Shown one piece after another: positions 1 through 62,676 of a stretch of DNA of 64,000 nucleotides. A model generated the notes under the pieces. The model had not been told where the DNA came from and did not search any database. It saw nothing but the letters and a program-made list of their open reading frames with translations. The translations under genes were made by a program, and so were the position numbers. The first letter of the stretch is position 1; each line of letters opens with the position of its first letter. Origin of the DNA: Paramacrobiotus metropolitanus (lineage: Eukaryota > Tardigrada > Eutardigrada > Parachela > Macrobiotidae); assembly GCF_019649055.1 (NCBI RefSeq), contig NW_026570256.1, forward strand, positions 372,001 to 436,000. Reading direction: 5' to 3'.

Positions 1-1782
1 AAGCGCTATTTGGTCCTGCATAGCACAGAGATCGGTATGGCGTTCAGCTGTCTCCGCCCACGCGGATATCTCGGAGCGCCAGTCACACCACAGTCATTTC
101 GTCAAGTGACAATCCCCATCGCTCAGCTGATGTTTTACTCCCACGCAGAACGTCGCAGTTACGAATTTTCGGATAACACTGAAGATACTCTAGAGCGAAT
201 CCGGGAGTTTCCGTCATTTCGTAGTCGTTTTTTGCGAAATACTCGCAATATTATGTTTCTCGGCGTTAGCGAAGACAAAGTTGAGCTGCTGTGTAGAAGA
301 GGCTATAAACTAGAAGCCGACGAAGGGCTCGTGTTCTCGGTATCCGGAGAGTGGTATAAAAGACTGTTTGCTCCTGGGTCAGACACTATTATTCCGTGCC
401 GCCGCGCTCTGGAAGAGATGCTTACCATTATTACGTTCCAGCATGGTAATTGTCATAAGAAAATTTCCTTACTGTATTGTGTAAACTTTTGCCTCTAACC
501 TGTCACAATTGCAGACCTGAACGAGCTGGATGAAACCCGTTTTGATGACCTTTACGTGGAACTGTGTCTGATGGTTTTCGGTTATTTAGATGTTTTCGAC
601 CAGCACTGCCTCCGCCGGTAAAGAGCCGGTAAAGAACTCAAAGCGCGCTTACCCAGATCAGTAGCTCACAGTAAATAAACTGGGCTTAATTTAAGGCTTA
701 ACTAATTTTATTTTATTTCATCGTATGTTGTTAGAAGTCAAGTTACGCTCTTGTTGCTTTTGTATAGACTGTTTGTTTTTCAGGTCGTGCAGTTATTTTG
801 ACCATTTATTGTCGTCGGTTGTTATCCAGCAATTTATAATTCTGCCATATCAGCCTGAGCATACGACACAGATTTTGAGTTATTTTACCTGCCGTGAAAA
901 CGTCTGTGAAATGGCTTACATTCTTGCGAGCTGTGTTACCACGAAAGCCAGAATTTTTATCTCACTGGCAATTGGAAGGACCGGCTACGCCCAGTCACAA
1001 TGGTACCACGATGTTTGGGCGTGCAGCTTGATTATCTGGTCATCGCCAACAACTCCGAGCTCTTCCTACACGAATTTTTTCCATTTCCACGGTCAGATCT
1101 CATGTTGTACACGTACGACTTAGTGGACATTCAACCCAATTATCTGTATCTGGCCGAAGGTGCTGGTGTTGATTATGCTTCCCTTTGTCGGCGTGTTGTA
1201 CTACAAAATTGCTGTTTCAATAGCAGATTATCGATATGTTTCATAGCAATTATGATGATCGATGCAGTTCAGCATACGAGTATGTTCATGCCGGAAGCGC
1301 CTGAACGACGGCACATCCGATGTTGTCATGACCCTTTTCATATCACCATTCCTCGTTGGCAGTACACTTTCACCAGTTCATCGACACCCACCTTTGAAAC
1401 AACCTTCAGGTCCGCGCTCGCGGAGTTTTGTCCGGCAGTGAAGAGCAGACAGGTGGACTCCTTATTGCGTTGGCTTGAGTCCTTGGCACCTGAAGATTTA
1501 GAACCCAGAAAGTGTATTTGGCCATTTATTGCGCTGACTTATGAGCTGTGGGTTTGCTTGAACTGCAAAAGCTTTTGCAGATATTCTCATTTTCATAACG
1601 GGTTTTTATAATTGGACAGGTGGAAAGAAAAGCCTCCCAAGTGTCTAGAAGACGCCAAAAAAGACATTTCCACCAAATTTTCTTCGAATAAATTGATGTT
1701 GCAGACACTTGCTCTGTTGCTACCGTGCATTACTGACGGATTTTGTTCCAATACACACGCGGTGGACAACGAGACGCTATGA
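1..1782 (+). pseudogene. F-box family protein copy 1 (5' truncated by window, frameshifted)
   Basis: Four exons can be placed: A <1-445, B 515-617, C 784-1547, D 1620-1782, with GT-AG boundaries and phases 1, 2 and 2, the same as in the copy at 12568-18340. Exon A matches that copy around RGYLG.PV.PQSF. Exon B (103 bp in both copies) encodes an F-box-like stretch (DLYVELCLMVFGYLDVFDQH). Exon C shares LVIANNS and CIW.FI. Exon D shares WKEKPPK and LQTLALLLPCI. Exon C has a frame break near 960-975: the frame reading ...ARIFISL must change to read NWKDRLRP...LDYLVIANNS, and its 764-bp length is out of phase with the 753-bp paralogue exon. The break could be a true pseudogene lesion or an assembly error. 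F-box proteins usually act as SCF ubiquitin-ligase adaptors; that role is inferred here. Confidence 0.72.
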
Positions 1783-5666: not shown

Positions 5667-6859
5667 TTAATTAATAAAGGCCGCGGCGAGGTATTCCTCT
5701 AGCATCGGTGGTTCCACCTTAAACCGGCGACTGATAAGTTTGCAGCCGTACAAGCAGGTCAAGCAGTTAGTAAGCAAAGCAGAGACAAGATAAATTTTCG
5801 CTGTCTGCTGCCAGAGCAACTGTTGGCTGCGAGAATAATTCCCAAATGCAAAATATCTTGCAATTTTTAAAAATCCTAGCTCAACAGCAACGCGACATAA
5901 GCATAAGTCTTTGTTAAACTGAATCTCTTCCGGAGTTAGGTTCAATCCCTTGTATGGCGTTTGGATTTCCGGAGAAATTGTATAGCCTTTATCGGCAAAT
6001 AAACAGTAATCGGGGTTTCCCCAATCGAGGTTTTTCCTCTTCAGCCGGCTTCGCAGTTTGGTCCTTAACAGCATGTACGCATCGTGTCTTCGTCCTTCCA
6101 CTGGTCCAAACATGTTAATGATAAGCCCGTCTGGTGCGACAACAGATTGAAATTTCATCACATGACGGCCACTGTGCCCGGAATAATATTCTTCCTGAAA
6201 TACGCTCGGCTTGCAAATTGCTCTTGCTGTACCATCAATAAAGCCCCAGCAGTGCTCTACAACAGCCCATACATTTATGGCACAGACACCAAATGAAGAA
6301 TACTTCTATGCAATAACGACAGACAGAAATACTGTCCCAACATACCGTATCGGCCTTTGCTTTCGCGGAAAACCGCTTCAGAGTATTTCTCAATGGCCTC
6401 TGGAGTTATCCAGTCAAGAGATTCGAGCAGCCGCCCTTTACGGCTGTAGATGTGACTAATGGTCGTATTAAAAATTCGGGATAACTGGCTCTGGTCTCTT
6501 CCCAGAAGATCCATTGTATCAACCCACCGGTTCGGGAAATCAAGACGACGCAATGTCACAGCAAAAGCTACCTCGGCGCTTACGTTGGTTCCGTTCGAAC
6601 ACACAATGCGGTCAGGCAGTTCCAGCGCATCCAAGAGCCGTCGGAAATCGGCATAAGATCGCATTCGAAAAAAAGCTCGAAACTTCTCCCGAGGCATTTC
6701 CTCTAAGCCAGTGTGATTGCGGTCATAGAACCGCTCGAATTCTCGGTCAGCATGGGTCAGGAGCGCGACACCCATAAATAAATGATCCAAGGTTTTAAAC
6801 ATTGCACGCCTGCGCTGGCGTCGCTTGGCCTTGAACTTTTTACACATCATGTAATGCAT
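5667..6859 (-). CDS. PIF/Harbinger DDE transposase (DDE_Tnp_4 type)
   Basis: Two exons: 6859-6346 and 6256-5667, separated by an 89-bp intron (gtatgt...tag). The joined frame is open and gives 367 residues, starting at MHYMMCKKFKAKRRQRRR. The N-terminal half contains a helical DNA-binding region (SAEVAFAVTLRRLDFPNRW, then DLLGRDQSQLSRIFN). Catalytic-core motifs are visible: CWGFIDGT (first Asp), GPVEGRRHDA (second Asp), ADKGY, and RVAVELGFLK (putative Glu). Length and motif order fit PIF/Harbinger transposases (roughly 350-450 residues). It cuts and pastes its own element in the nucleus. All three catalytic positions are present and no stop interrupts it, so this copy could still encode protein, although its partner gene appears frameshifted. 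Confidence 0.85.
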
Positions 6860-12567: not shown

Positions 12568-18340
<5,773 letters not shown>

Positions 18341-31600: not shown

Positions 31601-34330
31601 AAACAGAGGACAGACAGGATTAGGGGCAATAAAAGCTACGAGCTACAAGCAACTGCCACCAGAAGTGCGTTTGCGCAACGTGACTAGTGATTTACTTTCG
31701 TCGCTAGTGATTTAATTATCTAGTTTATGATATTATTTTGTAATTAATTTTTTTCTGCCTGTTGATAATAATTCAGCATTGATACAATATTCGCAGGCTT
31801 TATTGTGAGCAATGTTTTTAATTACTGCAATACTTTACTGCTTCGTTAACCATGGCCGCTGTGCATAGCCGTGCATACAGCCGACTTTAAAGTTTAAAAG
31901 ACTTAAAAGCCGTTGATTTTACTTTTACGAGGTATGAGTACAAACCGGTTTTGAGGCTGATGGTGAGGCGATAGCTGGCTGATTGTGAGAGCGAGCGAGT
32001 GAAGGGAACAATGGCAGTTGCGCAAGCGGCTGTATCACAGTTAGACGCAAAGATGTGCAGATAAAATCAGCTGTCAATCAATCTGTCAGGCGTGTTGTGG
32101 TTTAAATTTTAAACAGAAACTTTCTTTATCTCGTTGGTACAGTACATACTGGAGCTGAATGTCGATTGCTTTTATGTGTACAATACAGCGGCATTCAGCA
32201 CTTACTTGATCGGATTGGTGAAATGGAACTGCGTGAGAAGAAGCTCGGTGATGATGTCGCCAGCCGGAACCAAAAGTGAGTTGCAAAATAGTTTATACAA
32301 TACATACATACTTTACATTTACATACAGATAAATTTATACATGTAGTTATTGAAAGAAGCGCGCCTGCATTTCTCATTTAAGTCAATGATAGGAGCGGAT
32401 TTTCTTGGTAGGATCGGTGAAATGGCCGACCGTTGTCGTGATCTCGAAGAGCGAATTGTGGAGGTCAAATCCCAGTTGGAATTGTCGGAGAAGTCGAAGC
32501 AGATGCAGGAAAGCCGGGCACAGGATTTGTCAAACAAGCTGGCTGCCGTTTCCACAGTAAGAAATTTGTGTAAAATAAGTGGAAGAATTAACAGATGTAC
32601 TTGCCGTTCTTAAGATTTTTATAGTCATAATTTTAACCATAGATGCGTTGCAGTTAATTAACTGCTGGTTTAAACGCTGAATATTTCTGTTTGGATAATT
32701 TTTCTTTAATTTTCCCTTTAATTTGCCTTCTTTTTTTAAAATTTTACAGTGAAAATAACCGTTTTAGAACAAAATACGCATGCGTACCAAATGCATCTCA
32801 AAACGGATAATGGACTAGTATGTCTGTATTGGAGATAACGCCAACAACAAATTACAGGGAGAAAAATTTGTTAATGTAAAGTTTATCAATAACTTTTCAG
32901 GAACGCGATACTTTTAAACTGATCAAAGAAACCATGGACCAGTCGTCCAACCGCCGCTGTGATCCGTCCATCATGGCGAAACTGCGGGATCTGGAAGAGC
33001 GGGCCACACGCAGCCAGACACTGGCCGACAACTTTGAGCAGATGTATAACCGGGCATTCTCGTCGGAATCCCAGTTTAAGACCACCTTGGAGGACCTCCA
33101 GCGCCGCTACGAAGCGGAGACGGTGCGGGCGCATGAACAGCTGCAGAAGCTGACGGAGGAGAATGAGGAACTGCGGACGGTCAAGGAGGAGCTGGAGGAG
33201 CGGCTGGGCGAGTGGACGCTGCGGATGCTGCGCGGGGAATACGATCCCACGCGGACGGAGGTCGTGGTGGTCGGGGAGAGTCCGTTGGAAGCGGCGCAGA
33301 AGGAGTACTTGGCGGAGGCGGGGAAGGTGTTGGAGGAGAATAAACTGCTGCAGGAGAAACTCAACCAGGTGAAGATGGGCGGCGGATACAGCGGGGATGT
33401 GACGGTGAATGCCGAAGAGTTCCTGCGCGGTCCCGGGGAACAGCTGGAAGGTAAGTGTAACAAACGCCAAAAGGTCGTTTTTATGGTTTTTCTTTTAGCT
33501 CTTTTTGGGAGTCATTAAGCAGGTTTTCTCTTCAAAAATCCGCTATTTTCTGATTATTATTCTTCGTTACAAAATGAAAGCAACGATAAATTTTTTCGCC
33601 GTGTTAGGGTAGTTGCGTTGCTTTTTTTCCCAACGATACGGCGAAGAATACGGAGTAGGGTTACCATGAGCAATGAAGTATCGTAGTGCAAGGGTTCCAA
33701 ATGGCCGTAGGAGGCAGCAGGAGTTGGTGATCCAGATAAAGATTTACAAGTTACGAGATATAATTATAAATTTTACTAACAATTTGTAATATGTTTTAAA
33801 CTATTCTTATGTTTTAGAATAGTGTTTGGTTTTTTATTACTTAATGTGGTCGATACGGACGGTGCAGTTATTAAGGTTGTCGTCGCCTCGTTTTTTTATA
33901 ATTGCTTGATGCGCTCAGTCCTTTTAGTACCGGGTCAAGTGTGCGTACTGAAGTCCAGAATTTTTCAGAATTGAAGAAGCAGTTGGAGAAAGCGGAAAAG
34001 CAACGTAACCAGGACACGACTTTCTTCAAGAAGTCCATCCAGAGTTTCCGGCACGTGTGCCGCGACCTGCTGGGTTGGAACATCCGCTACGACGGCAACA
34101 AGATCGTCTTCCGCGTGGCCGACGCACCGGCTAACGAGACGATCGTCTTCGAGCGGGAGGACGAGAACAAGCCGTGGGAACTGCGCAGCAACGACTACAC
34201 CACGGCCAACCAGGTCTTCGTCAACGAGTTCCTCACCAGCCACCAGAGTCCCCCGGGATTCTTCGCCCGCATCATCCTCAAGATCCTCTCCGAGCGCACG
34301 CTGATTTGCATGGACTCCCCCACTCCGTAA
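28658..34330 (+). CDS. MAD1L1: Mitotic spindle assembly checkpoint protein MAD1
   Basis: Ten exons join in frame into 840 residues: 28658-29144, 29372-29580, 29805-30040, 30405-30537, 30979-31109, 31315-31497, 32189-32275, 32412-32556, 32901-33450, 33969-34330. The N-terminal ~160 residues are Pro/Ser/Arg-rich and probably disordered. The rest is almost continuous coiled coil. Family marks near the C-terminus are RMLRGEYDPTRTEVV (human MAD1 has a closely similar GDYD..RTKV) and the compact terminal domain FKKSIQSFRHVCRDLLGWNI...FVNEFLTSHQSPPGFFARI. MAD1 holds MAD2 at unattached kinetochores and nuclear pores and templates its conversion to the anaphase inhibitor. The disordered N-terminus makes it longer than the human protein (about 718). 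I did not locate the MAD2-interaction motif with certainty. The gene stands alone; introns are small and intron 6 contains a hairpin repeat. Confidence 0.93.
31505..31690. repeat. Hairpin repeat directly after a MAD1 splice donor
   Basis: Arms of about 85 bp (31505-31589 and 31608-31690) are reverse complements with few mismatches and about 20 bp of loop (for example ctggtggcagttgcttgtag and complement). The left arm starts 7 bp after the donor at 31498, so the pre-mRNA of MAD1 would form a long stem immediately next to the exon 6 splice site. It looks like a recent foldback insertion. Confidence 0.9.
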
Positions 34331-42900: not shown

Positions 42901-45209
42901 CCAGTCTGGGATATATAGGTTTTTGTCAAGCCACTTAACTACGCTTTGCTACAAACAACCACAGCGCTTAATATACTATGAAAAGCCATGTGAATTCCAG
43001 TAGCCATAAATTACTGCCTCTGCCCAGTAGCCAAATTTTATTCTGCCAGGAAATAACAAATTAGTGCTCTGTCTACAAGTATGGACTAGAGTGTTAAGAT
43101 ATGTTTGACGGACTCGTTTTGCATAATAAATAAGTCAGTACGCGAGCCTAAATTTTGTTCTTAAATGATTATCCGAAATGCACTCTAATTTTTACGCTGA
43201 AAATGTTTTCTAGCTAATAAATACGAATTATTTTCCCTCAGAAGAAACGCGTTAGCAAACTGTAGTATTGTTATTTCCTAAAATGACTCAGTCTTGACTC
43301 TTACCTACTCTGTTATTGCTGTTCTTAAAATTAAGTCTAGGTCCCGTGGGGTAATGTCTTATTGCGATGACCTTACCGGCAGCCTGATACAAAGCGATAT
43401 GCTCAGGGGAATAACACAGTCATAGCACACCAGCAGGTAATTAATCACCGCCGGCAGCCAGCCAATCAGGTAGACGAACAGGATAATCAGCGTGGTGATC
43501 AGTGCCCGTGTATTACTGGCCATGCGGCGTTTCTCATCGCGATAGCTGCGCTCGGTACTGGCCAGCTGGCTGGCGGTGACGCTCATACTGCCGCTGACGC
43601 TCACACTGCCCCCGCTGCTGCTGACGTTGTTGGTGTTGTAGTTGGCTGCGCTGCAGTCCAGGGTGCTCAATTTTTTCTGGTGCAAATGGATCTCGAGGAA
43701 GACATGGAAGTACACCACCGACATCAGGATTAACGGGGCGAAGAACAGTGCGGACACGAAGAAGCGGAAGGCGAATTTGTGCGCAAAATCGTCCCTTTGA
43801 CAGTATGGGGAGCGGAAGCCCTCATCGGGAATCGAGACGAAATATATGAAAAATATCACATCCTGCAATTGGGAAAGATGCACATGGTCATTAATATTCG
43901 TAATTTTTCGCATTTCTTTTTTCACAGTTATGATGTTTTTAATTTTTCGTACATGAGTGCAACAAAAAAGCACGAAATATAACTAATCCGAGCGTTTAAG
44001 AACTTAACGACAAAGACTATTGAATAACGTTTTGAAACATTAATAATGATGAGTAAATTCACGTAATGCTAAAAAAGGAAAAATTGCAAGGTATTTAAAA
44101 TCCAAAGATCCACTTGTAAGCGTACGTACATAAAAACTAAGACCAAAAATAAAATCTTTTTATGATATTTTTTTGACGTTTCATGTATGTACCGATGTAC
44201 GTATTACAGATTTTACGCACTCGGTTGGTACCTAATTTCAAAAGGACTGGAAGTCATTAACGCCACCGTACTACATTGTTCACTAATATTTCAAAACCAT
44301 TCGGATATTATTTACATTCCTACGCTCCGGATAACGGCAATAAATAGATAATTCACTGAGATTTGCGCACGTCACGGCAACAATGATTAATAAATTATGC
44401 ACTTAGTCTAAGCTAAGCTTCGGGATACATGCGCATTTTTTACTAACTTGATACATTATTCAAACGTGTTAAATTATTTTGTGCCGGAGTTTTTATTTGG
44501 GACTGCACGGCGAAAAAGTGAAAAGTGAGCACTCAGAAAATGTAAAATATCAACAAAGATGAATGCTAAAAGAACAGACAAACTTTCGCTCAATGTGGTT
44601 AGTTAAACTAGCGAAGGACGTAAGTACTTTTGTTAAGGACGAAAGCATCCCATGCACTACGAATCACGTTCAGTTATTCTGCTGCATCATATATTCTCAT
44701 ACCGGCAGTATCCACATCACCGCAATGCAAATGGCCGCATTCTGCCGCGTCATCCGCGATGCATAATGCAGCGGCTTCGTGATGCCCATCCAGTGATTAA
44801 TGGCCAGCGCCATGAAATGCAGCGCCGAGCACACCATCCCGCTCAGCCGCAGCGCCTCCACCACGAACTGTATACACGCCCGGTACTCCATGTCCACGTG
44901 GATGTTCCAGAAGAGGATGTTGTTCACCAGGATGCCCACCCCCATGGCGGCTGCCGCCACGGCATCCGCTGCCGCCAGGGACAGACTGAACATCAGCGTC
45001 GGTGTCAGCTGTTTCTTGCGGATGAAGAACACCGTGGACAGGATCAGGGCGTTGCCCAGGAAAGCTAGGGCGCATAGTGCCAGGAACACCGGGCCCATGA
45101 TCAGGTAGATGGAGGACAGGTAGCGGATGGCGCGCTCATCGGACTCAACGGTGTCGCAGCGCAGGGGACGCGCGTCGAAAAGTGTCGTGCTATTATTGGT
45201 CGGCGTCAT
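39964..45209 (-). CDS. Class A (rhodopsin-like) orphan GPCR
   Basis: Four exons: 45209-44703, 43862-43377, 42716-42611, 40346-39964, with GT-AG junctions and phases 0/0/1, giving 493 residues. The extracellular N-terminus has a glycosylation site (NNST). TM1 has GN (GNALIL), TM2 has LAAAD, the TM3 cysteine is in YRACIQF and the ECL2 cysteine in SPYCQ. TM3 ends in NHW instead of the usual DRY, then MGITKPLHY. TM6 has GWLP instead of CWLP. TM7 has YPIIY in place of NPxxY, followed by helix 8 (TARIREIR). ICL3 carries a Ser/Gly-rich insert and the C-tail is long and Ser/Pro/Arg-rich. The third exon (106 bp) was found only by following phase. It is a plasma-membrane receptor signalling through G proteins; the ligand cannot be told. 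The PLHY segment after TM3 is shared with many amine-type receptors, but no subtype is claimed. Introns are 0.7 to 2.3 kb without supportable genes. Confidence 0.88.
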
Positions 45210-48200
45210 GGTAGGCGCGGTTTAGATGGTCAGGGCACTGAGGACGATCTGTAGCAAAGGTCAAGATATTAGTCGAGCGTGGGTGCATAAATTTAGCACT
45301 CTGATGAAAAAATATTTTATGAACAAGACTTCGGTAGTTCCGCTACTTTAACAACTAACGCATTTTTTTTGTCTAAAAATTTAGTGATGATTTCGCGTTT
45401 ATTCGTGGCAATATTGTAAAATCACTAATTAAAACGTGTAATTTTCTTGCTGATGTTTGTAGATTGAACAGCGTTTGTTACCATGTGCTGTAAATTTTCG
45501 CAACTTAAAAAATAATTAAACTTTATTTAGACACTTGGATAGTGTAAGTATACCAGCAGTTAGTATTCGTAAAGATTCACCGGAAAATGCCACAGCACTA
45601 CGATTTCCACAATTTTCATTACGTTTCACATCTTTGGCTGCCTCTCGTATGCTCTCCTAACCGAGCGCAAAATCAGTGCAAAACGGTGCATTTATACATA
45701 CGCCCATGATGGATGGACCATGGCGTTAAGTGCGACAACACAGTGCATCTACATAAGCGGAGCACTCTGGAAAATTGTTCTCCAGTCGGCTGGATACGGC
45801 GGATATACATCCGTTATGGCGTGCGGTGTATATACGTTGGGCCTGCAGCGACGCTGACAGGCGGAAGTCAAGGTAACGTTAGGGAAATGAGGCTGAGTTG
45901 GCCTAGAAACGTCGCGAGCGGGGTATTGTGCAGCCGGGAAAGCAGAGAAAATTACCCCAAATCATTATGACCGGCGTTTCCGCCATACACACAGACACAC
46001 GCCCCACACACTGCACACCCCACATCCCGCGGTTTTATTGGGATTTCGGCTTTAACCGGCTGGTTAGCACGGTAAATGGGCCCGTAATTGGCGGACCCGT
46101 ATGGCGCTCATTATATTGATTGTTTACACAAGCAAACGATCAGGGATAACGGGTGAAATGGTCTTCAAGTGGCCGGCATTAGCGCCAAGATGGTAAACGA
46201 GTGTAAACTGAGCCAAACTGAGTATTTTTAATGGTCAATTTTTGTGCGTGTACTTATAATACAACAGCTAGTACTGCACCGACTTCAGCAAAATTTTCGT
46301 TTGAATTTCAGGCAGACATTTCGCAGCTTGGACAAAAAGCGCCAGCTGTTCTTCTGACGCAATATTATTTAGACGTTTAAAAATACCTAAGTCTGGTTTT
46401 TAAAATTATTTAAAACACGATGAAATTATAACTACGTCCTAAAAATTAACAGATTTAGCAGGTTCCTGATTTTATTTGATTTAATATTATTCTGGGACAT
46501 TCGAGTTAGCGTTCGAGAGTATGACTGGCACGCGGTAACCACTACTCTACGATTTTCCAATATTTTCTGTTTTTTGATGGGCTCCTTCTTTTCTCTGCTT
46601 ACTTATCGTATAATACAAAAATGCATTTTAGCCGCGATATTTGGGCTATATTCTGAAAATAGTTTACTTTTTACTTACTCGGGCTCTCTGGCGTAATATG
46701 TTAGCTGGTAAAACATGATAGAATTGCTTCTTGTACATTCCTTAAATCGAGCAGTAAGTTTAACCGCGCACAAATAGTTAAACGAAAGTATTTGAACGCC
46801 GTTTTTTTATGGCAGTCCATGCTGTAGTATCGCCTGTTAGACCGGGAAAACGGCAATGTTTTGCCGATTTAAACGCATTACGATCGAGTAACAGCAGCCA
46901 CTGGGTCAATCAATTGCCTAAATATTGACCATTTACTTCCGACACAGCTTGAAATGCGTTTGATCGTTAGTGAAGAAGATTCCCTCTCCCAAGTGTTCAT
47001 TAGCTCCACTAATACCGGCAAACGATTTTACGGTATATTGTCAGTTGGGAAAGTGCGGATTAGAGAAAATTTCATTATTTCAATCGGAAATCCTGTTAAC
47101 ATTTTATGACTTCTTATTTAACGACTTACGAAATTTGAATAGAAAAACGCAAATAAAGCCACGTGTTAGAAAAAGCGACCAAGTGTTGTGCAATCAATCA
47201 CAAAAAAGGGGAAAATACTTATGCTGCTGAGTGCGCAGGTTAAGTAATTTAAATTAAAATTATTTTAAATCGCAGTTTTGATCGAGTAATTATACCATTC
47301 AGACTTATGCATTACTGGTTTTGTTTAACTAAACTCCGTACGGATATCTGGTACTTTTTTATTTCAGTTTATAAACTAAATTTTTATACCGTTTTAATTG
47401 AAAAATACGGCAAGCTGAGAAACGAATTCGATAATCGGAGCAAGATGGTAATTAGACAGCCGTCAGCTCGCAGTTTGTCGGCTGGTGTATATATGGGAGA
47501 TTAATACCGGCGACAGATGTAGCGTCACGCTCCAGAAAATGAGTTCCTGCCACGAAACGGCGTCTTAATGAAATTATTAATGATATCGTTTGTAGCGCGG
47601 CAACTGTCGCCGCGCTGCGCGGACAATCCCGCGCGGGACACATTTCTGTGGCGCAACACCGGCAACACGGGCATATTTCACATTATATACGAGACTGTGC
47701 GCCGGGGCGCTGACAAATGCCGATGCGGTAATCCGCTGCTATTGCAAAATAGGCTAATAGCACTCTTACAACGCTCATTATCATATTTCATCATCGATAA
47801 TTGTTAACATTTTTTTTATTTGAATGTCAGGTTTTATGTGGAAAAGCAGGTTTTCCACGAATAAATTAGTTTTAGAATGTTATTGCACTAACGCTTATAA
47901 CTATTAAAATTTAGGCGATCATTTACACAGTGAAGCCGGAATATCACTTTGAAGTTGTACGATCAAACACGCTTTATTTAACAACACATCGATAAAGCAA
48001 ACAATCAATTAAAAAGCAGAAAAACAGTGGGAAAACGGCAGACGGCATAATTTTGATTGTTTACTATGAAGCAAATCATCAGACTTTACTAAAAAGAAGA
48101 TGGCTTTTTTTAGATCGATACAGTATACCTTTATCGATTTATAACAAACTACCTTTTTTAGATACCTTTCTGCTACGGTTTTTTTCTCTAAAAAATACTT

Positions 48201-55908: not shown

Positions 55909-58280
55909 ATGGGACGGAAGTATTGCATTTTCCACTGCGTTCTAATAGTTCTCGTACTGCTTCACAGTGCAGCAGCAGTGGTGGACGAAAATGATGAAAT
56001 TGTCATAACGGCTGGTAAGGCTGCTCTGAGGTGCAATGGCGAGAGTCTAAACCGGCAGGCGCGAAAATTTGTGCGGACATTATGTAATTGTTGCAGAAAT
56101 TAAGTGGTGCACTTATAATTACAGCGCTGTTCATAGTTGCTTCCTACTCATATTTTCAGATATGCAAATGGGTTGATAATGATTTCACGAATGTCGCTGA
56201 TTTGTTCCCAATATATATGCAGACTGCCAAGCGCATACTCCAGAACGCGCCATTCATAATCATATTCACTGCTTTCATCTAGCCGATTTCATTCACAGAC
56301 CTTTTCAACGAGCCGATAAACTTTTTTGACGCAAATGTCATTGCGAAAACTGGCCCTACGCTGTGGCCAAACCGCACAGCCATCCCTTACGTTATCGACA
56401 GTGATTTTGGTGAGTGCACCAGCATTCAAACGAGTTTGAAGAACACAACGTTAAATTCTTCTTCTTGCTACTTAATTGATTTGTATTTCAAAAAAAAAGT
56501 TATCGTCGTCTGTAATTATGAAATATGGACCAACAAAGCTGAAAAATGCGAGTGTACACTCACCGGTGACAACCCGGTTAGCTTATTCAACATATTATAC
56601 TGCTTAACGACACGGGCAGTTTTGTTTTTATGTCTTCCATTGAAGTTGCCAGTTTTTATGTAGCTAACTGTGTCTTAGAACCAGCCGAAAAGCAAACAAT
56701 TCTGAGAGCACTGCGCATCATGGAGAGAAAAACGAGAGGATGCATTTTATTCACACCACGCGTAGACGAGATTGACTGCATCTATTTCATAACAGATGTC
56801 TGGGAAGGAACGTAAGTTCGTAGATCGTGGTGTATGCCATTTTGTTAGGGCCCAGACTGACTGTGAACTTCATTACAGGTGCGCTTCCAAAGTCGGAAAG
56901 ATAGGAGGGAAGCAGTACATAATACTGGCACGAGCAACGTGGCGGTCATCTTCATGTGTCGATACCAGAAGCATCCAGCACGAGGTCATGCACACCCTGG
57001 GCTTTCATCACGAGCATCAGCGCCCTGACCGAGATCAGTATGTGAACGTGCGCTTCAGCAATATAGACATGGATAATTACGGCGCAGAGGACTACCCGAT
57101 CGATGCAACAATGTACACCTTTGGAACAAAATACGACTACCATTCCATTGTACACTACGATGCATTTAGCGGGGCTAGTAACAAGCAAAGCCCCGCTATG
57201 ATACCGAAACATGGACTAATTGTTCGTATGGGTCAGAAAGCGCGCATGAGCCCGGGAGATGTGGCTAAGATCACGCTGGCTTACCAATGCCCGCTGAATA
57301 TCGTTGCCGGCAACCGAGAGTTCGATGAGGATTTTCCGAATTTCTCACGGGAACCGATGGACCTGGACCAGTGTGCGGCGCAATTCAACCGCTACTGCCA
57401 ATCAGATATCACCACAATAACGAACTGCACAAGCCGCCGGGATTTCCGTATTGTTTGCCAGTCGATTGCATCGGTGGCTGTGCTAGAGCGGATGGCGTTG
57501 GATATGGCAGAGAAACCGCTGCGACTGATCTCCATATATGTGGAAGAGCAATTAATTACAAAGTATTCGTTTCTGCCAATACAACGTCAAATACTGCACC
57601 TGCAACTCCAAAATTGCATCACGAAAAACGCAACCAGCAGGCTGAATAAAATGGGGTTTACAAATTTGCTCCATTTCGAACTTTACCATTGCCGCAAGTT
57701 GGTTATAGAAAAGACGGACTTCGCTTCTTCCAGACAGATTAGAATTATAGTGTTCTACAACACCACCCTTGGTTTGCTGGAGCCCGAAACTTTCACGGAT
57801 TTAGCTGAACTTCAGATACTATCTCTGGAGGCTCTTTTGGAAGGACAAAAGAACTACAAATTTGGGCAGCCGTTTAAAAATTTTCTGCGTAATCTTCACT
57901 GTGGCTGTGACTTTGCATGGTATCGATCATGGTGGCGAAGGAATAAACGGTTGCGGCTGAGCGTTGAGGCGGGTGAGTTGTATTCGTTTGCCGGACCTTC
58001 CACTGGCACGCTTTTTAGTAGCAACATGTTTACTAAAGATGATCTGTATCATCCCGTGAACTGCCAAGACGAGCCCTTTCCTTTGGGTCCTGCGTGGATT
58101 AACTATTACGCTCAAACTGAGTATTCCATTAATGAACCAAACTGCAAAGTCGGACAGAGCAGTTCTACTGGCTCCATAGGAAAGCCTGCAACAGATTCTA
58201 AACCGGCTGCGGCACCGATCAAAACACCGACTGGATCCGCTACCTTCATTAGAACTACGAATTCCATAGTGAATACATGA
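55909..58280 (+). CDS. Secreted astacin metalloprotease with LRR-type C-terminal region
   Basis: Four exons: 55909-56014, 56299-56409, 56685-56811, 56879-58280, with phases 1/1/2, giving 581 residues. The start gives a clear signal peptide (about residues 1-25, CVLIVLVLLHSAAAV). The astacin domain runs from about WPNRTAIPYVID to AYQC252, with the zinc motif HEVMHTLGFHHEHQR at 149-163. The Met-turn position reads S204-I-V-H-Y208: the family methionine is replaced by Val206, while the zinc-ligand Tyr is kept. After a short linker come a Cys cluster (C280, C288, C298, C308), irregular leucine-rich segments at about 329-450 (LHLQLQNC, LLHFELYHC, IRIIVFYNTT, LQILSLEAL), then an LRRCT-like cap LHCGCDFAWYRSWW at 454. 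It ends in a Thr/Ser-rich tail with no membrane helix. It probably acts outside the cell on peptides or matrix. No propeptide switch residue was identified; a short pro-region separates the signal peptide from the domain. Confidence 0.9.
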
Positions 58281-58612
58281 GAGTCAGGAGTAAAACCGGC
58301 ATTGAACAATAGGTATAAGAAAACGATAGAGTAAAGAATTTATAAAAATTTGTTTTATTACATCTGTTCTGTATACTTGACATTGCCACGGTTAATGTTG
58401 GATATTACGGTCTTTAATATTCCTTGTGTTTCCATTACCTTGCGAAAGATTTTTATTTACCAAAAATCTGTGTGCTATGCTGCTAACCCTTGAAAGAAAT
58501 TGTTTTTGCAAACAGTTGCTCTGCTTGTTGGTTTCATGATGCCTGTATGCATGGATTAAAACAATTGTTGTTTTCGCTTCTTTGACCAGCTGCCGTAATA
58601 TGTTGTGATTTA
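58281..58612. other. 3' flank of astacin 1, no gene seen
   Basis: AT-rich 3' flank of the first astacin gene. A minus-strand frame at 58392-58691 lies downstream of the GPCR fragment but shows no transmembrane motifs of that receptor. Confidence 0.35.
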
Positions 58613-58649
58613 TCACAAAAAAACTGTAACAGCTGAAACTGTACACAAC

Positions 58650-58910
58650 TTTACGAGTAATTGGCAACATAAGTACACATAAATTAAGCACAAAGAAACA
58701 GCAAGAGGAAAACCGGACCCATGATTAAGTACTCTGTATCTGTAGATGAAGAACAGATGGTGGACGACGCGCTCCTCCGAGTCGACGGTGCCGCAGCGTA
58801 GAGGTCGCGCGTCGGGAAGCGTCGTGCTGTTATTGTTCAAAGACATGGTTCGGCGCGGTTCAGCTGGTCAGGGCGTTGAGGCCAGTCTGCAGCAAAGGTC
58901 AAGGCATTAT
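58650..58910 (-). pseudogene. Duplicated first-exon fragment of the GPCR
   Basis: On the minus strand the sequence from 58846 reads MSLNNNSTTLPDARPLRC then GTVDSEERVVHHL. This is close to the GPCR start MTPTNNSTTLFDARPLRC DTVESDERAIRYL. A frame change follows, after which LIMGPVFL of TM1 is still recognisable (near 58700-58725). Similarity also extends about 60 bp upstream of the ATG into the 5' flank (cagtctgcagcaaaggtcaag). TM2-TM7 are absent. It lies between the two convergent astacin genes, about 13.6 kb from the intact GPCR start. It is a truncated, frameshifted duplicate. Confidence 0.85.
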
Positions 58911-60142
58911 TTGGGCTTCGGGCCATTAATATAGTACTCTGAATCGAAAAGTGAAGCTTATCAACATGGGTTTGGAAGTTTACAGAACTATTTGGATTGT
59001 TTTTCTTTTCTTTTGGTAAAGTTGTATACTGTTTCATAAAATGCTCAGTTTGCTTGCAAATAAAGTACTATGAAAGTTCTACGTAGTTTACAGGCATTGT
59101 ATTTTCACTGTTGTATTAGCATCCATGTGACCATGTACAGTATTCGCAACTTATAAACATGGCGTGTCCAGTGCATGATCATACCGTGTGTCACACACAT
59201 TAATCAACTTCCGATAACTGCATAATATATGAAACATGACTTGACGTCACAAAGCATGGCATTGCTACCCAGTAGCGCTTCGACGATTGCTTTACAGTAA
59301 TACCACTGTTGTTGGTAGTATCACGCTTTAGAATACGTATGAACACGACTGTATTCCATTTATTGCTAAAACAGAAACTGGTTTTCACTATCATACCGTG
59401 TAAAATGCTGGAACGTTTTCATTGCTGCCGTGTATACAACATGTTTTATTACCCAGCCATGCAACAAATACAGTACGCGCAGTTTCAAATAACCCGCGGC
59501 AGTACCTATGATTTTTCATATCCGGAAATGACGACAGTTGTCATCATCGCCACCAATCGAGATATCTTCGGCCTTCAAGATCAGTCAACAATTAAATTAA
59601 CTGCTCTTATATCCTGCTGGGGTTCAAGCGAACTTTGGAAGTTAACTAGTAGTCTTCACCTGCATTATTGCCGGTGAGGCTGATGAATGTCATTCATTGT
59701 TGTGTAGCGCCCTTTTCAGAATTGGCCAGTACGATACTTGTGACATGCCTCAGAATGCATGACTGCGTATAATTATGTGTGAAAATAATTTTAAAATAGG
59801 AATAAACTCGGCAAAATCAAGACTTGCTTTGTTGTTAACTGTACATAAATGCGCCGCTGACCGCCGGCCATTTCATATGGCATTTTGCAGGATTGAACAG
59901 CACTGCAGTTTTACTGTGGAATTTAACGACTTAACGTTATAAGTGAAACGGTAGTTTTGATTTGATTCGACCCGTCAGGCTGAAAACTGCAACTTTTTAA
60001 AAATTGAAAGAAACAACAGCCAGTGCATTTGAACCAAGTCACGCACCTGAGCCCATTGTCAGAATTTTTTTATTACCGTTATCGCGTGAAAACTGGAGCA
60101 CATAGCCATAAAGCCCTTCTATATTCCATTACTTTTAAGAAC
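58911..60142. other. Spacer between GPCR fragment and astacin 2
   Basis: A 122-codon plus-strand frame at 59309-59677 (VFHLLLKQKLVFTIIPCKM...) has no recognisable features and lies in sequence of ordinary composition. No other structure is seen. The 3' UTR of the second astacin should lie at the right end. Confidence 0.35.
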
Positions 60143-62676
60143 TTATTCGTTAGCAAAAGCGACGCTGTAGTCTTCACTCGGTCCTCCATTCCTAGATCGC
60201 CCCCATATTGATCCATCATTTCGAAAGGACGTCCACCAACTTCTACATCGCTCGTCCTTAATAACCGCCATAATAGCAGCGATCAGAACAGCAGCGCCCA
60301 AAATTACGCCTGCCGAGGTACCTGTTATGGTCCCTGGGCTTAATTTATTTCGCGACAGTGCAAGAGGCCTAATAGTAACATTCCACGGCAAAGTCGTCGA
60401 GACAACCGTTGATTCAGTGGATGTCAGGGCGGTTGCCGTTGTGGTGGGATTCACTATCAAAGTTGATAGCCTCGGTGCAGAAGTTGTGGCAGTGGGTGCT
60501 TGGTTGCAAAGGGGGTCGTTGACAGAGTAATCAAGTTGCCAGTAATAGCTTATCCATTCTGTGCTGAGAGGAAACGGATCTGCATTGCAGTTGATGGGAT
60601 GGAACACATCTTCTTTGTTAAACTCATCACTATTAAAGAAAGTGCCGATAAAAGGCCCCTCGAAGGAATACAATTCTCCTGTCTGAACTCTGAGGCGCAA
60701 CGCTGGATTGGATCTCCACCATGAACGATACCAGGCGAATTCACAGCTGCAGTGCAGACGGTGTAGATAATCTCGAAAGGATGGTTCAAAATTGTGATTT
60801 TTCTGGCTGTCCGGTAGCGCTTCCAAAGAAAGAATCCGCAGTTCTGGCAAATCTGTAAACGAGCCTGGCTGGAGAACGTTAACGGTGGTATTATAAAAGG
60901 TTATTATTCGCAGCCGTTGGGATATCGCAAAATCAGCCTTTTGGATAATCAGGCCATGGCAGTGGTGGAGTTCAAAGTGCAACAAATTAACAAAATTTAA
61001 CTTCTCCAGTCTTAATGTCACGCGGTCCGTGATGCAGTTGCGTAGCTGCAGCCTCAGGATTTGGTTCCGAATCGGAGAAAAGGAATATCGGGCGATTAAT
61101 TGTTCTTCTACATCCAAGGATGCCAGTCGCAAAGGTTCCTGTGCCATACCGGCCGCCATACTTTCCAAAATAGGCAACTCTGCATCAGACTGGCAAAGAA
61201 CACGTAAATCCCTTCGATTCGTGCAATTCCACTGAGTGGTTATGTCCGACGTACAATAATCGTTAAACTGCAGCTGACACTGATCGTCCGTCATCGGTTC
61301 AAGAGAGAAATTTGGAAAATCCGCGTTTTTAGGAGCCGCTTTGGTGTCCAGAATAACGGTTAATGGACATTTGTAGAGTAAGGCTATCCTCGCGACATCG
61401 CTCGGGCTCATGCCCATTTGTTGACCCATGCGATTAATAAGCCCTCTTTTTGGGACCAGCGCCGGAATCTTGTTAGATGAGGCAAACGCAAAGGCATCAT
61501 ACTGCAGGACGGAATGGTAGTCGTATTTTGTTCCGAAAATGAACGCTGATGTGGTGAATGCGAAGTTCTCATATAGCTCATCTGATGCAATGTTGTCCTT
61601 GCGTATGTAGACATACTGATCGCGGTCTGTGCGCTGTTGCTCGTGATAGAAGCCCAAGGCGTGCATGACCTCGTGCTGAATTCTTCCCGTCTCCATACAT
61701 GATGATGAGGAAACAAGTCCGGCGCGGGCCAGATGAATATATTGCATCCCACCAATTCTACCGATCTTCGAGTCGCATCTGATGGAGCAAAGGAAATGTA
61801 GCGATTTAAATTTTCACAAGGAAGTACATGCTGTATCACGTGTACTCACATGCCCCGAAAGTTCCCGAGGAAGTAAATGTAATCACTTTCATCGCTTCTA
61901 GCCTTGAACAGTACACATCCTTCTGTCTTTTTCTCCATGATACGCAGAGCCTTAAGAATCACTTGCCTTTCTTTTGTACCTGTAACATAAATTTATTATT
62001 TGGAAAATTGCTTAAGTACACGTATGTTGCGTGCAAGATTGTTCACGTGTTCAAGGTTTAACGGTGTGAGCATATTGACGGGCGATGTAAGCATTTTCGC
62101 CCGTCAAATATGCTCTCACCGTGAACCGGGAACAGGTTAATTACGGTACAATTTTGCCGGCTACATACGTACAGTATTTCACAACTGCTTAAACATGCAG
62201 GATTAGTAAGCGGATTGTCTTTATATCAAGTTTAGCACTGGCAAGAAACTTTTCGAAATTCGAAAAAATAGTTGTAAATGTTTGAAGCTTTTTTTAAAGT
62301 ACTAACAAACTGGTCATAACAACTATGTATAACAAACGGCCGTCGGTTCGCAAAAAATCAGTCGTTTTCCTCACTAAAATCGCTGCTGATATAATAAGGA
62401 ATCGCTGTGTGATTTGGCCAAAGTGTGGAGCCTGTTTCCGTCTCGGCACTGACGTCGGAAAAGTCGCCCGGCTGATAGAATAAATCTAAAAAGAAACCTT
62501 TTCTAGGTAAACTTTTTCAGAAAACAAACTGAATGTAAATATATTAATTTTGAGGGCAACCTTTTACCTGCTGTTACCTCAACGTTACCGCTTTCATCGG
62601 ATACTGCCGCAACGATGTCCAAATGAAGTACGAAGACTACTAAGACACGGAACAGTGAGCAAGGTTTTCTATCCAT
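60143..62676 (-). CDS. Membrane-anchored astacin metalloprotease with LRR-type region
   Basis: Four exons: 62676-62568, 62485-62375, 61979-61850, 61778-60143, with the same phases (1/1/2) as the plus-strand paralogue, giving 661 residues. Signal peptide MDRKPCSLFRVLVVFVLH...; zinc motif HEVMHALGFYHEQQR at 152-166. The Met-turn reads S205-V-L-Q-Y209, so Met is replaced by Leu207 and the next His by Gln; Tyr is kept. The Cys cluster, leucine-rich segments (LRLQLRNC, LLHFELHHC, LRIITFYNTT, LRILSLEAL) and LRRCT-like LHCSCEFAWYRSWW follow. Then comes a long Thr/Ser-rich stalk (TTATALTSTESTVVSTTLPW), a transmembrane helix (about 598-622, SAGVILGAAVLIAAIMAV) and a 38-residue basic cytoplasmic tail. 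It is therefore a type I membrane protease, unlike its neighbour. The two genes converge tail to tail. A stem-loop lies in intron 2. Confidence 0.91.
62055..62127. repeat. Stem-loop in intron 2 of the membrane astacin gene
   Basis: Arms of about 29 bp (acggtgtgagcatattgacg and complement) flank a loop of about 12 bp. It is similar in style to the other hairpins of the window but unrelated in sequence. Confidence 0.75.

What the first reader, a model, noticed from the sequence alone, without database searches (positions are those of the whole stretch)
55909..62676. Convergent pair of astacin proteases fused to an LRR/LRRCT-type region
Both proteins follow the order signal peptide, astacin domain, four-Cys cluster, irregular leucine-rich segments, and an LRRCT-like cap (C-x-C-x3-W-x3-W). 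The known astacin groups I recall (tolloids, meprins, nematode NAS proteins, hatching enzymes) carry CUB, EGF, MAM, TSP or ShK modules, not LRR caps. An LRR capture domain would give a protease its own protein-recognition surface. Order and motifs are seen directly; novelty is inferred.
Basis: partly seen in the sequence, partly recalled or inferred. Interest (0 to 1): 0.82.

Follow-up and report, generated by a model that had tools for sequence, protein, structure and literature searches.

The report
Tardigrade proteases carrying leucine-rich-repeat modules
Two neighbouring genes, in a genome that matches a water bear's, encode astacin-type protein-cutting enzymes joined to a leucine-rich-repeat module, and they belong to a very large family in that genome in which many close members appear to have lost the ability to cut.

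Summary
Both genes have four exons, GT-AG introns and a complete astacin domain (Pfam E 1.4e-42 and 3.3e-45), followed in the same open exon by a four-Cys N-cap, five leucine-rich repeats and an LRRCT-like cap. A 30-member profile of this module finds LRR proteins in the PDB (Toll-like receptor 13, E 2.6e-16); a paralogue with three modules passes Pfam's LRR_8 cut-off (62.3 against 27 bits). The window proteins alone do not pass it, and AlphaFold was uninformative, so the solenoid is inferred from sequence. The genome matches Paramacrobiotus metropolitanus. The module occurs at 171 or more places: fused to astacin, in up to three tandem copies, and in genes with no astacin nearby. Of 23 close astacin-LRR loci, 12 have lost the zinc motif; where measurable, their astacin domains still look constrained (dN/dS 0.14-0.28, 4 of 28 pairs). 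Gene B is membrane-anchored; A shows no anchor. Best reading: proteases with an LRR exosite, part of the clade turned into pseudoproteases. Activity, expression and spread to other species are untested.

The parts
55909..56014 (+). Gene A exon 1: signal peptide and start of pro-region
   Evidence: GT donor, frame keeps through splice; signal peptide judged by eye
56299..56409 (+). Gene A exon 2: short pro-region and N-terminus of astacin domain (TLWPNRTAIPYVID)
56679..56811 (+). Gene A exon 3: astacin domain, part
56879..58280 (+). Gene A exon 4: active-site half of astacin, LRR module, S/T-rich tail, stop
56979..57014 (+). Gene A zinc motif HEVMHTLGFHHE, intact
57330..57518 (+). Gene A module N-cap, four Cys invariant in 30 of 30 aligned units; no recognised homologue
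57519..57893 (+). Gene A five leucine-rich repeats (module residues 76-200)
57894..58145 (+). Gene A LRRCT-like cap, C-x-C-x3-W-x3-WW ... C ... C
58146..58277 (+). Gene A S/T-rich tail, 44 aa, no transmembrane helix in this exon
62568..62676 (-). Gene B exon 1: signal peptide and start of pro-region
   Evidence: signal peptide judged by eye
62375..62485 (-). Gene B exon 2
61850..61979 (-). Gene B exon 3
60143..61778 (-). Gene B exon 4: active-site half of astacin, LRR module, S/T-rich stalk, transmembrane helix, tail, stop
61640..61675 (-). Gene B zinc motif HEVMHALGFYHE, intact
60506..61321 (-). Gene B LRR module (N-cap, five LRR, LRRCT-like cap)
60260..60316 (-). Gene B transmembrane helix SAGVILGAAVLIAAIMAVI, followed by a 38-aa tail
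   Evidence: Kyte-Doolittle mean 2.59 over 19 residues

Best explanation
Genes A and B encode extracellular astacin zinc proteases of a tardigrade (genome matching Paramacrobiotus metropolitanus) that carry behind the catalytic domain one copy of a family-specific LRR module: four-Cys N-cap, five 24-28-residue repeats, LRRCT-like cap. A has a signal peptide and no membrane anchor in its last exon; B is a type I membrane protein. The module most likely acts as an exosite that holds a protein partner or substrate next to the active site, as the accessory domains of other astacins are thought to do (recalled). Within the same clade a branch lost the zinc ligands while keeping module and astacin scaffold, which fits a binding-only role for those members. 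Shown: architecture, full astacin domain, zinc motif, module family, membrane anchor of B, amplification, loss of zinc motifs. Inferred: LRR solenoid in three dimensions, protein binding, catalysis by A and B, binding-only role of the motif-less members.
For: Astacin over 2-189 of 189 profile positions in both spliced proteins; HExxHxxGxxHE intact in both. Module profile against PDB: best Toll-like receptor 13, E 2.6e-16, aligning C-x-C and Trp with its C-cap; 76 sequences at E 0.01 or better, of which the 60 shown all bear names of LRR proteins. LRR_8 in 25 of 30 units at E up to 10, best 1.2e-6, and 62.3 bits against a cut-off of 27 in the three-unit paralogue L039, in one 984-aa open frame with astacin. 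Module and astacin share one exon; 41 of 150 listed astacin matches have a module within 250 nt. Transmembrane helix in 5 of 18 exon-4 proteins tested (B, L021, L023, L024, L028), all five with intact zinc motif; 0 of 8 motif-less ones. Zinc motif lost in 12 of 23 close loci, 8 of the 12 with uninterrupted exon-4 frames. dN/dS well under 1: motif-less astacin domains 0.14-0.28 (4 of 28 pairs with dS under 1.5), intact ones 0.14-0.41 (15 of 36).
Against: Neither window protein reaches Pfam's LRR_8 cut-off alone (15.0 and 14.7 bits against 27). LRRCT alone is weak, where the family profile also meets unrelated FTO chains at E about 0.9. The N-cap matches nothing. The conserved Met of the Met-turn is Val in A and Leu in B, which may lower activity. 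A clear FxGD pro-region switch (motif recalled) was not seen in A or B. Synonymous sites are saturated in most pairs. No RNA, activity or binding data.
Confidence: 0.62

Rival explanations
1. The LRR module is the working part and the astacin domain is mainly a scaffold: the proteins are chiefly extracellular adhesion, matrix or receptor proteins, and proteolysis is secondary or self-processing.
For: 12 of 23 close loci lack the zinc motif yet keep the module. Module-only genes exist: L046 (one run of two units) and L047 (further units) show no astacin exon in 7.5 and 9 kb by a profile that did find astacin in the positive controls L039 and L040. At least 171 module places. The LRRCT region is among the least variable parts.
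Against: Zinc motif intact in 11 of 23 close loci and in every one of the more distant astacins whose motif was read; astacin domains of intact members show dN/dS 0.14-0.41.
Confidence: 0.22
2. A diversifying innate-recognition repertoire: many LRR modules bind many different non-self or partner molecules, with the protease as effector and motif-less members as decoys or receptors.
For: Family size, tandem clusters (13 module places in C36:429-521 kb), membrane-bound and unanchored forms, motif-less members; only one TIR match was found in the genome (exon-wise search).
Against: Exposed strand positions of the repeats are not hypervariable: mean entropy 0.94 against a random mean of 1.13 in the 17-row clade (P of as low 0.094) and 1.80 against 1.81 over all 30 rows. 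dN/dS is low. No infection or expression data.
Confidence: 0.11
3. The C-terminal region is not an LRR but an unrelated Cys-rich fold, or the fusion is a gene-model artefact.
For: Sub-threshold LRR_8 in each window protein and uninformative structure models.
Against: Profile hits to LRR proteins at E down to 2.6e-16, above-threshold LRR_8 in L039, one uninterrupted exon through both parts in both window genes and many paralogues.
Confidence: 0.05

Closest known systems
Astacin / M12A family (crayfish astacin, hatching enzymes, meprins, BMP1/tolloid)
   Same: Complete PF01400 domain, HExxHxxGxxHE zinc motif, the four domain Cys, signal peptide; B is membrane-anchored, as meprin beta is (recalled)
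   Different: No CUB, EGF, MAM, MATH, TSP or ShK domain was reported for A or B at E 0.1; instead an LRR module with N- and C-caps. Met-turn Met replaced in A (Val) and B (Leu)
Toll-like receptors and Slit-type extracellular LRR-LRRCT domains
   Same: 24-residue repeats followed by a C-x-C ... W ... C ... C cap; Toll-like receptor 13 is the best PDB match
   Different: Only five repeats, an N-cap of unknown type, a longer spacing in the C-cap, no TIR domain; linked to a protease
Pseudoproteases within protease families (concept, recalled)
   Same: Zinc ligands replaced in 12 of 23 close loci while the domain stays recognisable (PF01400 76.3, 80.5 and 69.3 bits in three of them)
   Different: Attached to an LRR module and arising inside one tandemly amplified clade; inactivity not assayed

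Membership tests
Astacin (M12A, PF01400) | Full-length domain above curated cut-off | tested here: met
   146 and 154.5 bits against 22.5, profile 2-189 of 189
Astacin (M12A, PF01400) | HExxHxxGxxHE zinc motif | tested here: met
   HEVMHTLGFHHE in A, HEVMHALGFYHE in B; lost in 12 of 23 close paralogous loci
Astacin (M12A, PF01400) | Met-turn S-x-M-H-Y (recalled) | tested here: not met
   SIVHY in A and SVLQY in B: Met replaced in both, Tyr kept. The feature defines metzincins, so A and B are filed as astacin-family members by domain and zinc motif, with a divergent Met-turn
Astacin (M12A, PF01400) | Pro-region with FxGD aspartate switch (recalled) | tested here: inconclusive
   Only FFDAN (A) and FSDVS (B) near the expected place, by eye
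Astacin (M12A, PF01400) | Proteolytic activity | not testable with these tools
   needs recombinant protein
Leucine-rich repeat proteins | LRR_8 above Pfam cut-off in the protein itself | tested here: not met
   A 15.0, B 14.7 bits against 27; met only in paralogue L039 with three units, 62.3 bits
Leucine-rich repeat proteins | Homology of the module family to known LRR proteins | tested here: met
   profile of 30 units against PDB: E 2.6e-16 to 0.01 for 76 sequences, the 60 shown being LRR proteins by name
Leucine-rich repeat proteins | Curved solenoid fold | tested here: inconclusive
   two AlphaFold jobs, mean pLDDT 37.6 and 33.7
LRRCT cap | C-x-C ... C ... C with Trp directly after the last repeat (recalled definition) | tested here: met
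   C203, C205 and C257 invariant, C284, W209, W213 and W214 nearly invariant in the 30-row alignment
LRRCT cap | Recognised by LRRCT profiles | tested here: inconclusive
   LRRCT_2 in 2 of 19 members, best E 0.091; PDB matches over the C-x-C at E 0.071 and weaker
Meprin / tolloid / nematode NAS groups | CUB, EGF, MAM, MATH, TSP or ShK accessory domains | tested here: not met
   none among the Pfam matches of A or B at E up to 0.1
Toll-like receptors | Intracellular TIR domain | tested here: not met
   no TIR match in A or B; one TIR match in the whole genome, on contig C15

The most novel reading that the evidence does not exclude
In this tardigrade an LRR module has been amplified to at least 171 copies and coupled to astacins as a protease-armed extracellular recognition system, with catalytically dead members as receptors or decoys, perhaps in place of an expanded Toll-receptor set.
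Probability: 0.12. Interest if true: 0.85.

Novelty: new variant of a known kind. Interest (0 to 1): 0.58.

Why it matters
Astacins are usually classed by their accessory domains; an LRR module would add a new kind and a natural test of how an exosite sets substrate choice. The tandem clade with intact and zinc-less members side by side lets one ask what a pseudoprotease keeps when catalysis goes. The family is also large for one genome and, as far as the searches here went, undescribed in open-access tardigrade papers, so it bears on what tardigrades do with extracellular proteolysis.

Tried and rejected
Both models were low confidence and no fold search was run on them.

N-cap: a 20-member profile matched nothing convincing in the PDB (best E 0.54) or Pfam (zf-RING_13 in 2 of 20, best E 0.00097, judged chance from Cys spacing), so I do not call it LRRNT. 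NCBIfam gave LegP at 79 and 82 bits against a cut-off of 300, i.e. the shared astacin domain.

Diversifying recognition: tested by entropy of exposed strand positions, not supported. One origin of the zinc-less state: not rejected (p-AU 0.234) but not shown; the tree needs at least two changes.

Organism by 18S rRNA and by COX1: not answered by the machine. Identified instead by assembly figures and DMRT places.

A first dN/dS run gave 0.11-0.27 for the astacin domain over chosen pairs, but stopped with an error in its last table and had trimmed L025 wrongly; one search repeats it with clean trimming over all pairs of 8 zinc-less and 9 intact loci, and repeats the tail table.
Full report
What is there. 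Gene A (55909-58280, +) and gene B (62676-60143, -) are convergent four-exon genes. With GT-AG introns they give uninterrupted proteins of 583 and 661 aa. Pfam finds a full astacin domain in each (146 and 154.5 bits, positions 2-189 of 189). The zinc motif is intact in both (HEVMHTLGFHHE, HEVMHALGFYHE); the Met of the Met-turn is Val in A and Leu in B, whereas it is Met in each of the 14 loci outside the close clade in which that stretch was read (L039, a second view of L004, not counted).

The C-terminal module. It starts about 13 residues after the astacin domain in the same exon and is about 270 residues long: an N-cap with four Cys that are invariant in all 30 units aligned, five repeats of 24-28 residues, then a cap with C-x-C-x3-W-x3-WW, C and C. 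I read the repeats as LRRs because the 30-unit profile finds Toll-like receptor 13 at E 2.6e-16 and 75 more PDB sequences at E 0.01 or better, of which the 60 shown all bear names of LRR proteins; because LRR_8 appears in 25 of 30 units at E up to 10 (best 1.2e-6); and because the paralogue L039, with astacin and three units in one 984-aa open frame, passes the LRR_8 cut-off at 62.3 bits. Against this, A and B alone score 15.0 and 14.7 bits, below the cut-off of 27, the C-cap alone is recognised only weakly, the N-cap not at all, and AlphaFold failed (mean pLDDT 37.6 and 33.7; the two models disagree).

Organism. The window's genome has 169,799,020 bases in 533 contigs; its C1 is 4,484,719 and its C51 1,033,953 bases. 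The published assembly of Paramacrobiotus sp. TYO has 170,483,395 bases, 684 scaffolds, longest 4,484,941, N50 1,033,707 (PMC8277472, passages). A paper on P. metropolitanus reports five DMRT genes and a DMRT pair on scaffold 5 within 1.96-2.37 Mb (PMC11191345, passages); here there are five DM-domain matches, two of them on C5 at 2.135 and 2.163 Mb. That Paramacrobiotus sp. TYO and P. metropolitanus are the same animal is recalled. I take the organism as P. metropolitanus, a tardigrade.

The family. Three capped searches with different units (136 matches, 135 of 502 candidates scored; 144 matches, 142 of 513; 150 matches, 150 of 485) together give 171 distinct places on 50 contigs after merging; new rows were picked by eye for that script. 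This is a lower bound. By nearness (1500 nt, same strand) they fall into 92 single units, 35 pairs and 3 triples. Of 136 units, 41 have a listed astacin within 250 nt upstream, 27 within 3 kb, 13 only another unit, 55 neither; but the astacin list held 150 of 164 matches and 150 of 445 candidates, so 'neither' is not absence. For two fetched stretches I looked directly: L046 (7.5 kb) and L047 (9 kb) hold units and no astacin exon by a profile that found astacin in L039 and L040. A cluster of 13 module places lies on C36 between 429 and 521 kb, A and B at its start.

Active and dead members. In one search I read the zinc motif in the 23 loci of the close clade (A, B, L010-L017, L019-L030, L033). 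Eleven are intact; twelve have lost it (for example MVIMRALGFDYE in L015, RYTMRSIGFEHE in L013). Eight of the twelve have an uninterrupted exon 4 (L013, L014, L015, L019, L020, L022, L025, L026); L016, L017, L027 and L030 are broken or partial, as are L029 and L033 among the intact ones. In a tree of 22 loci built without the motif columns, five zinc-less loci form a clade (100/99), ten intact ones another (83/94), the rest are unresolved; two changes are needed and one origin is not rejected (p-AU 0.234; searches failed, 77). dN/dS (Nei-Gojobori; pairs with dS under 1.5): zinc-less astacin domains 0.14-0.28, median 0.18, 4 of 28 pairs; intact 0.14-0.41, median 0.25, 15 of 36; modules 0.08-0.17 (7 of 28) and 0.15-0.21 (9 of 36). 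So the zinc-less domains do not look like decaying remnants, though few pairs are usable because synonymous sites are saturated.

Anchoring. Of 18 exon-4 proteins, five (B, L021, L023, L024, L028) have a helix of mean hydropathy 2.36-2.77 after the module; a sixth, L031, ends in a weaker hydrophobic stretch (1.80) that could be a lipid-anchor signal (inference). None of the eight zinc-less ones has one in this exon; later exons were not examined.

How it most likely works. A and B are probably secreted and membrane-bound astacins whose LRR module holds a protein partner by the catalytic domain. The zinc-less branch would keep binding only. If the modules served diversified recognition, exposed strand positions should be unusually variable; they are not (0.94 against a random mean of 1.13 in 17 rows; 1.80 against 1.81 in 30 rows). 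That points to a shared or conserved partner and lowers the immune-repertoire reading, which I keep as the boldest one, since the genome shows only one TIR match.

What is known. Ten word searches of an open-access library found no paper on an astacin-LRR fusion (listings only, apart from passages of PMC11191345, PMC8277472 and PMC5531438). PMC5531438 mentions metalloproteinase families among those changing expression in anhydrobiosis in other tardigrades (passage), a lead only; 'astacin' does not occur in its text nor in that of PMC11191345. Gene models for this assembly are published (24,903 genes, PMC8277472 passage), so the sequences themselves are public. I rate it a new variant of a known kind: an astacin with a new kind of accessory module, greatly amplified, with pseudoprotease members.

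Noticed in passing
window 910-1611 (+) and 12754-13569 (-): Two ORFs that look like paralogues of each other (shared LVIANNS, PFP.S.LMLYT, NCCFNS.LSICF), with no Pfam match at E 0.01: possibly another unnamed lineage family.
   Followed up: no
window 43359-45221 (-): Exons of a rhodopsin-type receptor (7tm_1, E 4.4e-12 and 8.4e-9).
   Followed up: no
window 5667-6305 (-): DDE_Tnp_4 transposase fragment (E 2.6e-21).
   Followed up: no
window 32880-33518 (+): Coiled-coil ORF with a sub-threshold match to mitotic checkpoint protein Mad1 (E 0.0024, 16.8 bits against 30).
   Followed up: no
L047 1467-2327 and 5150-6031 (-): Two module-only units have lost the second Cys of C-x-C in the cap (HCGRAFEW, HCGLAFEW; by eye), so their cap disulphides must differ.
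   Followed up: no
L002 2324-2794, reverse strand: Downstream of an astacin exon without an LRR module lies an ORF with two short Cys-rich repeats that look WAP-like by eye: another accessory domain among this genome's astacins.
   Followed up: no
G000 contig C15:1172397-1172657: The only TIR-domain match found in the genome, beside at least 171 LRR modules of this family.
   Followed up: partly
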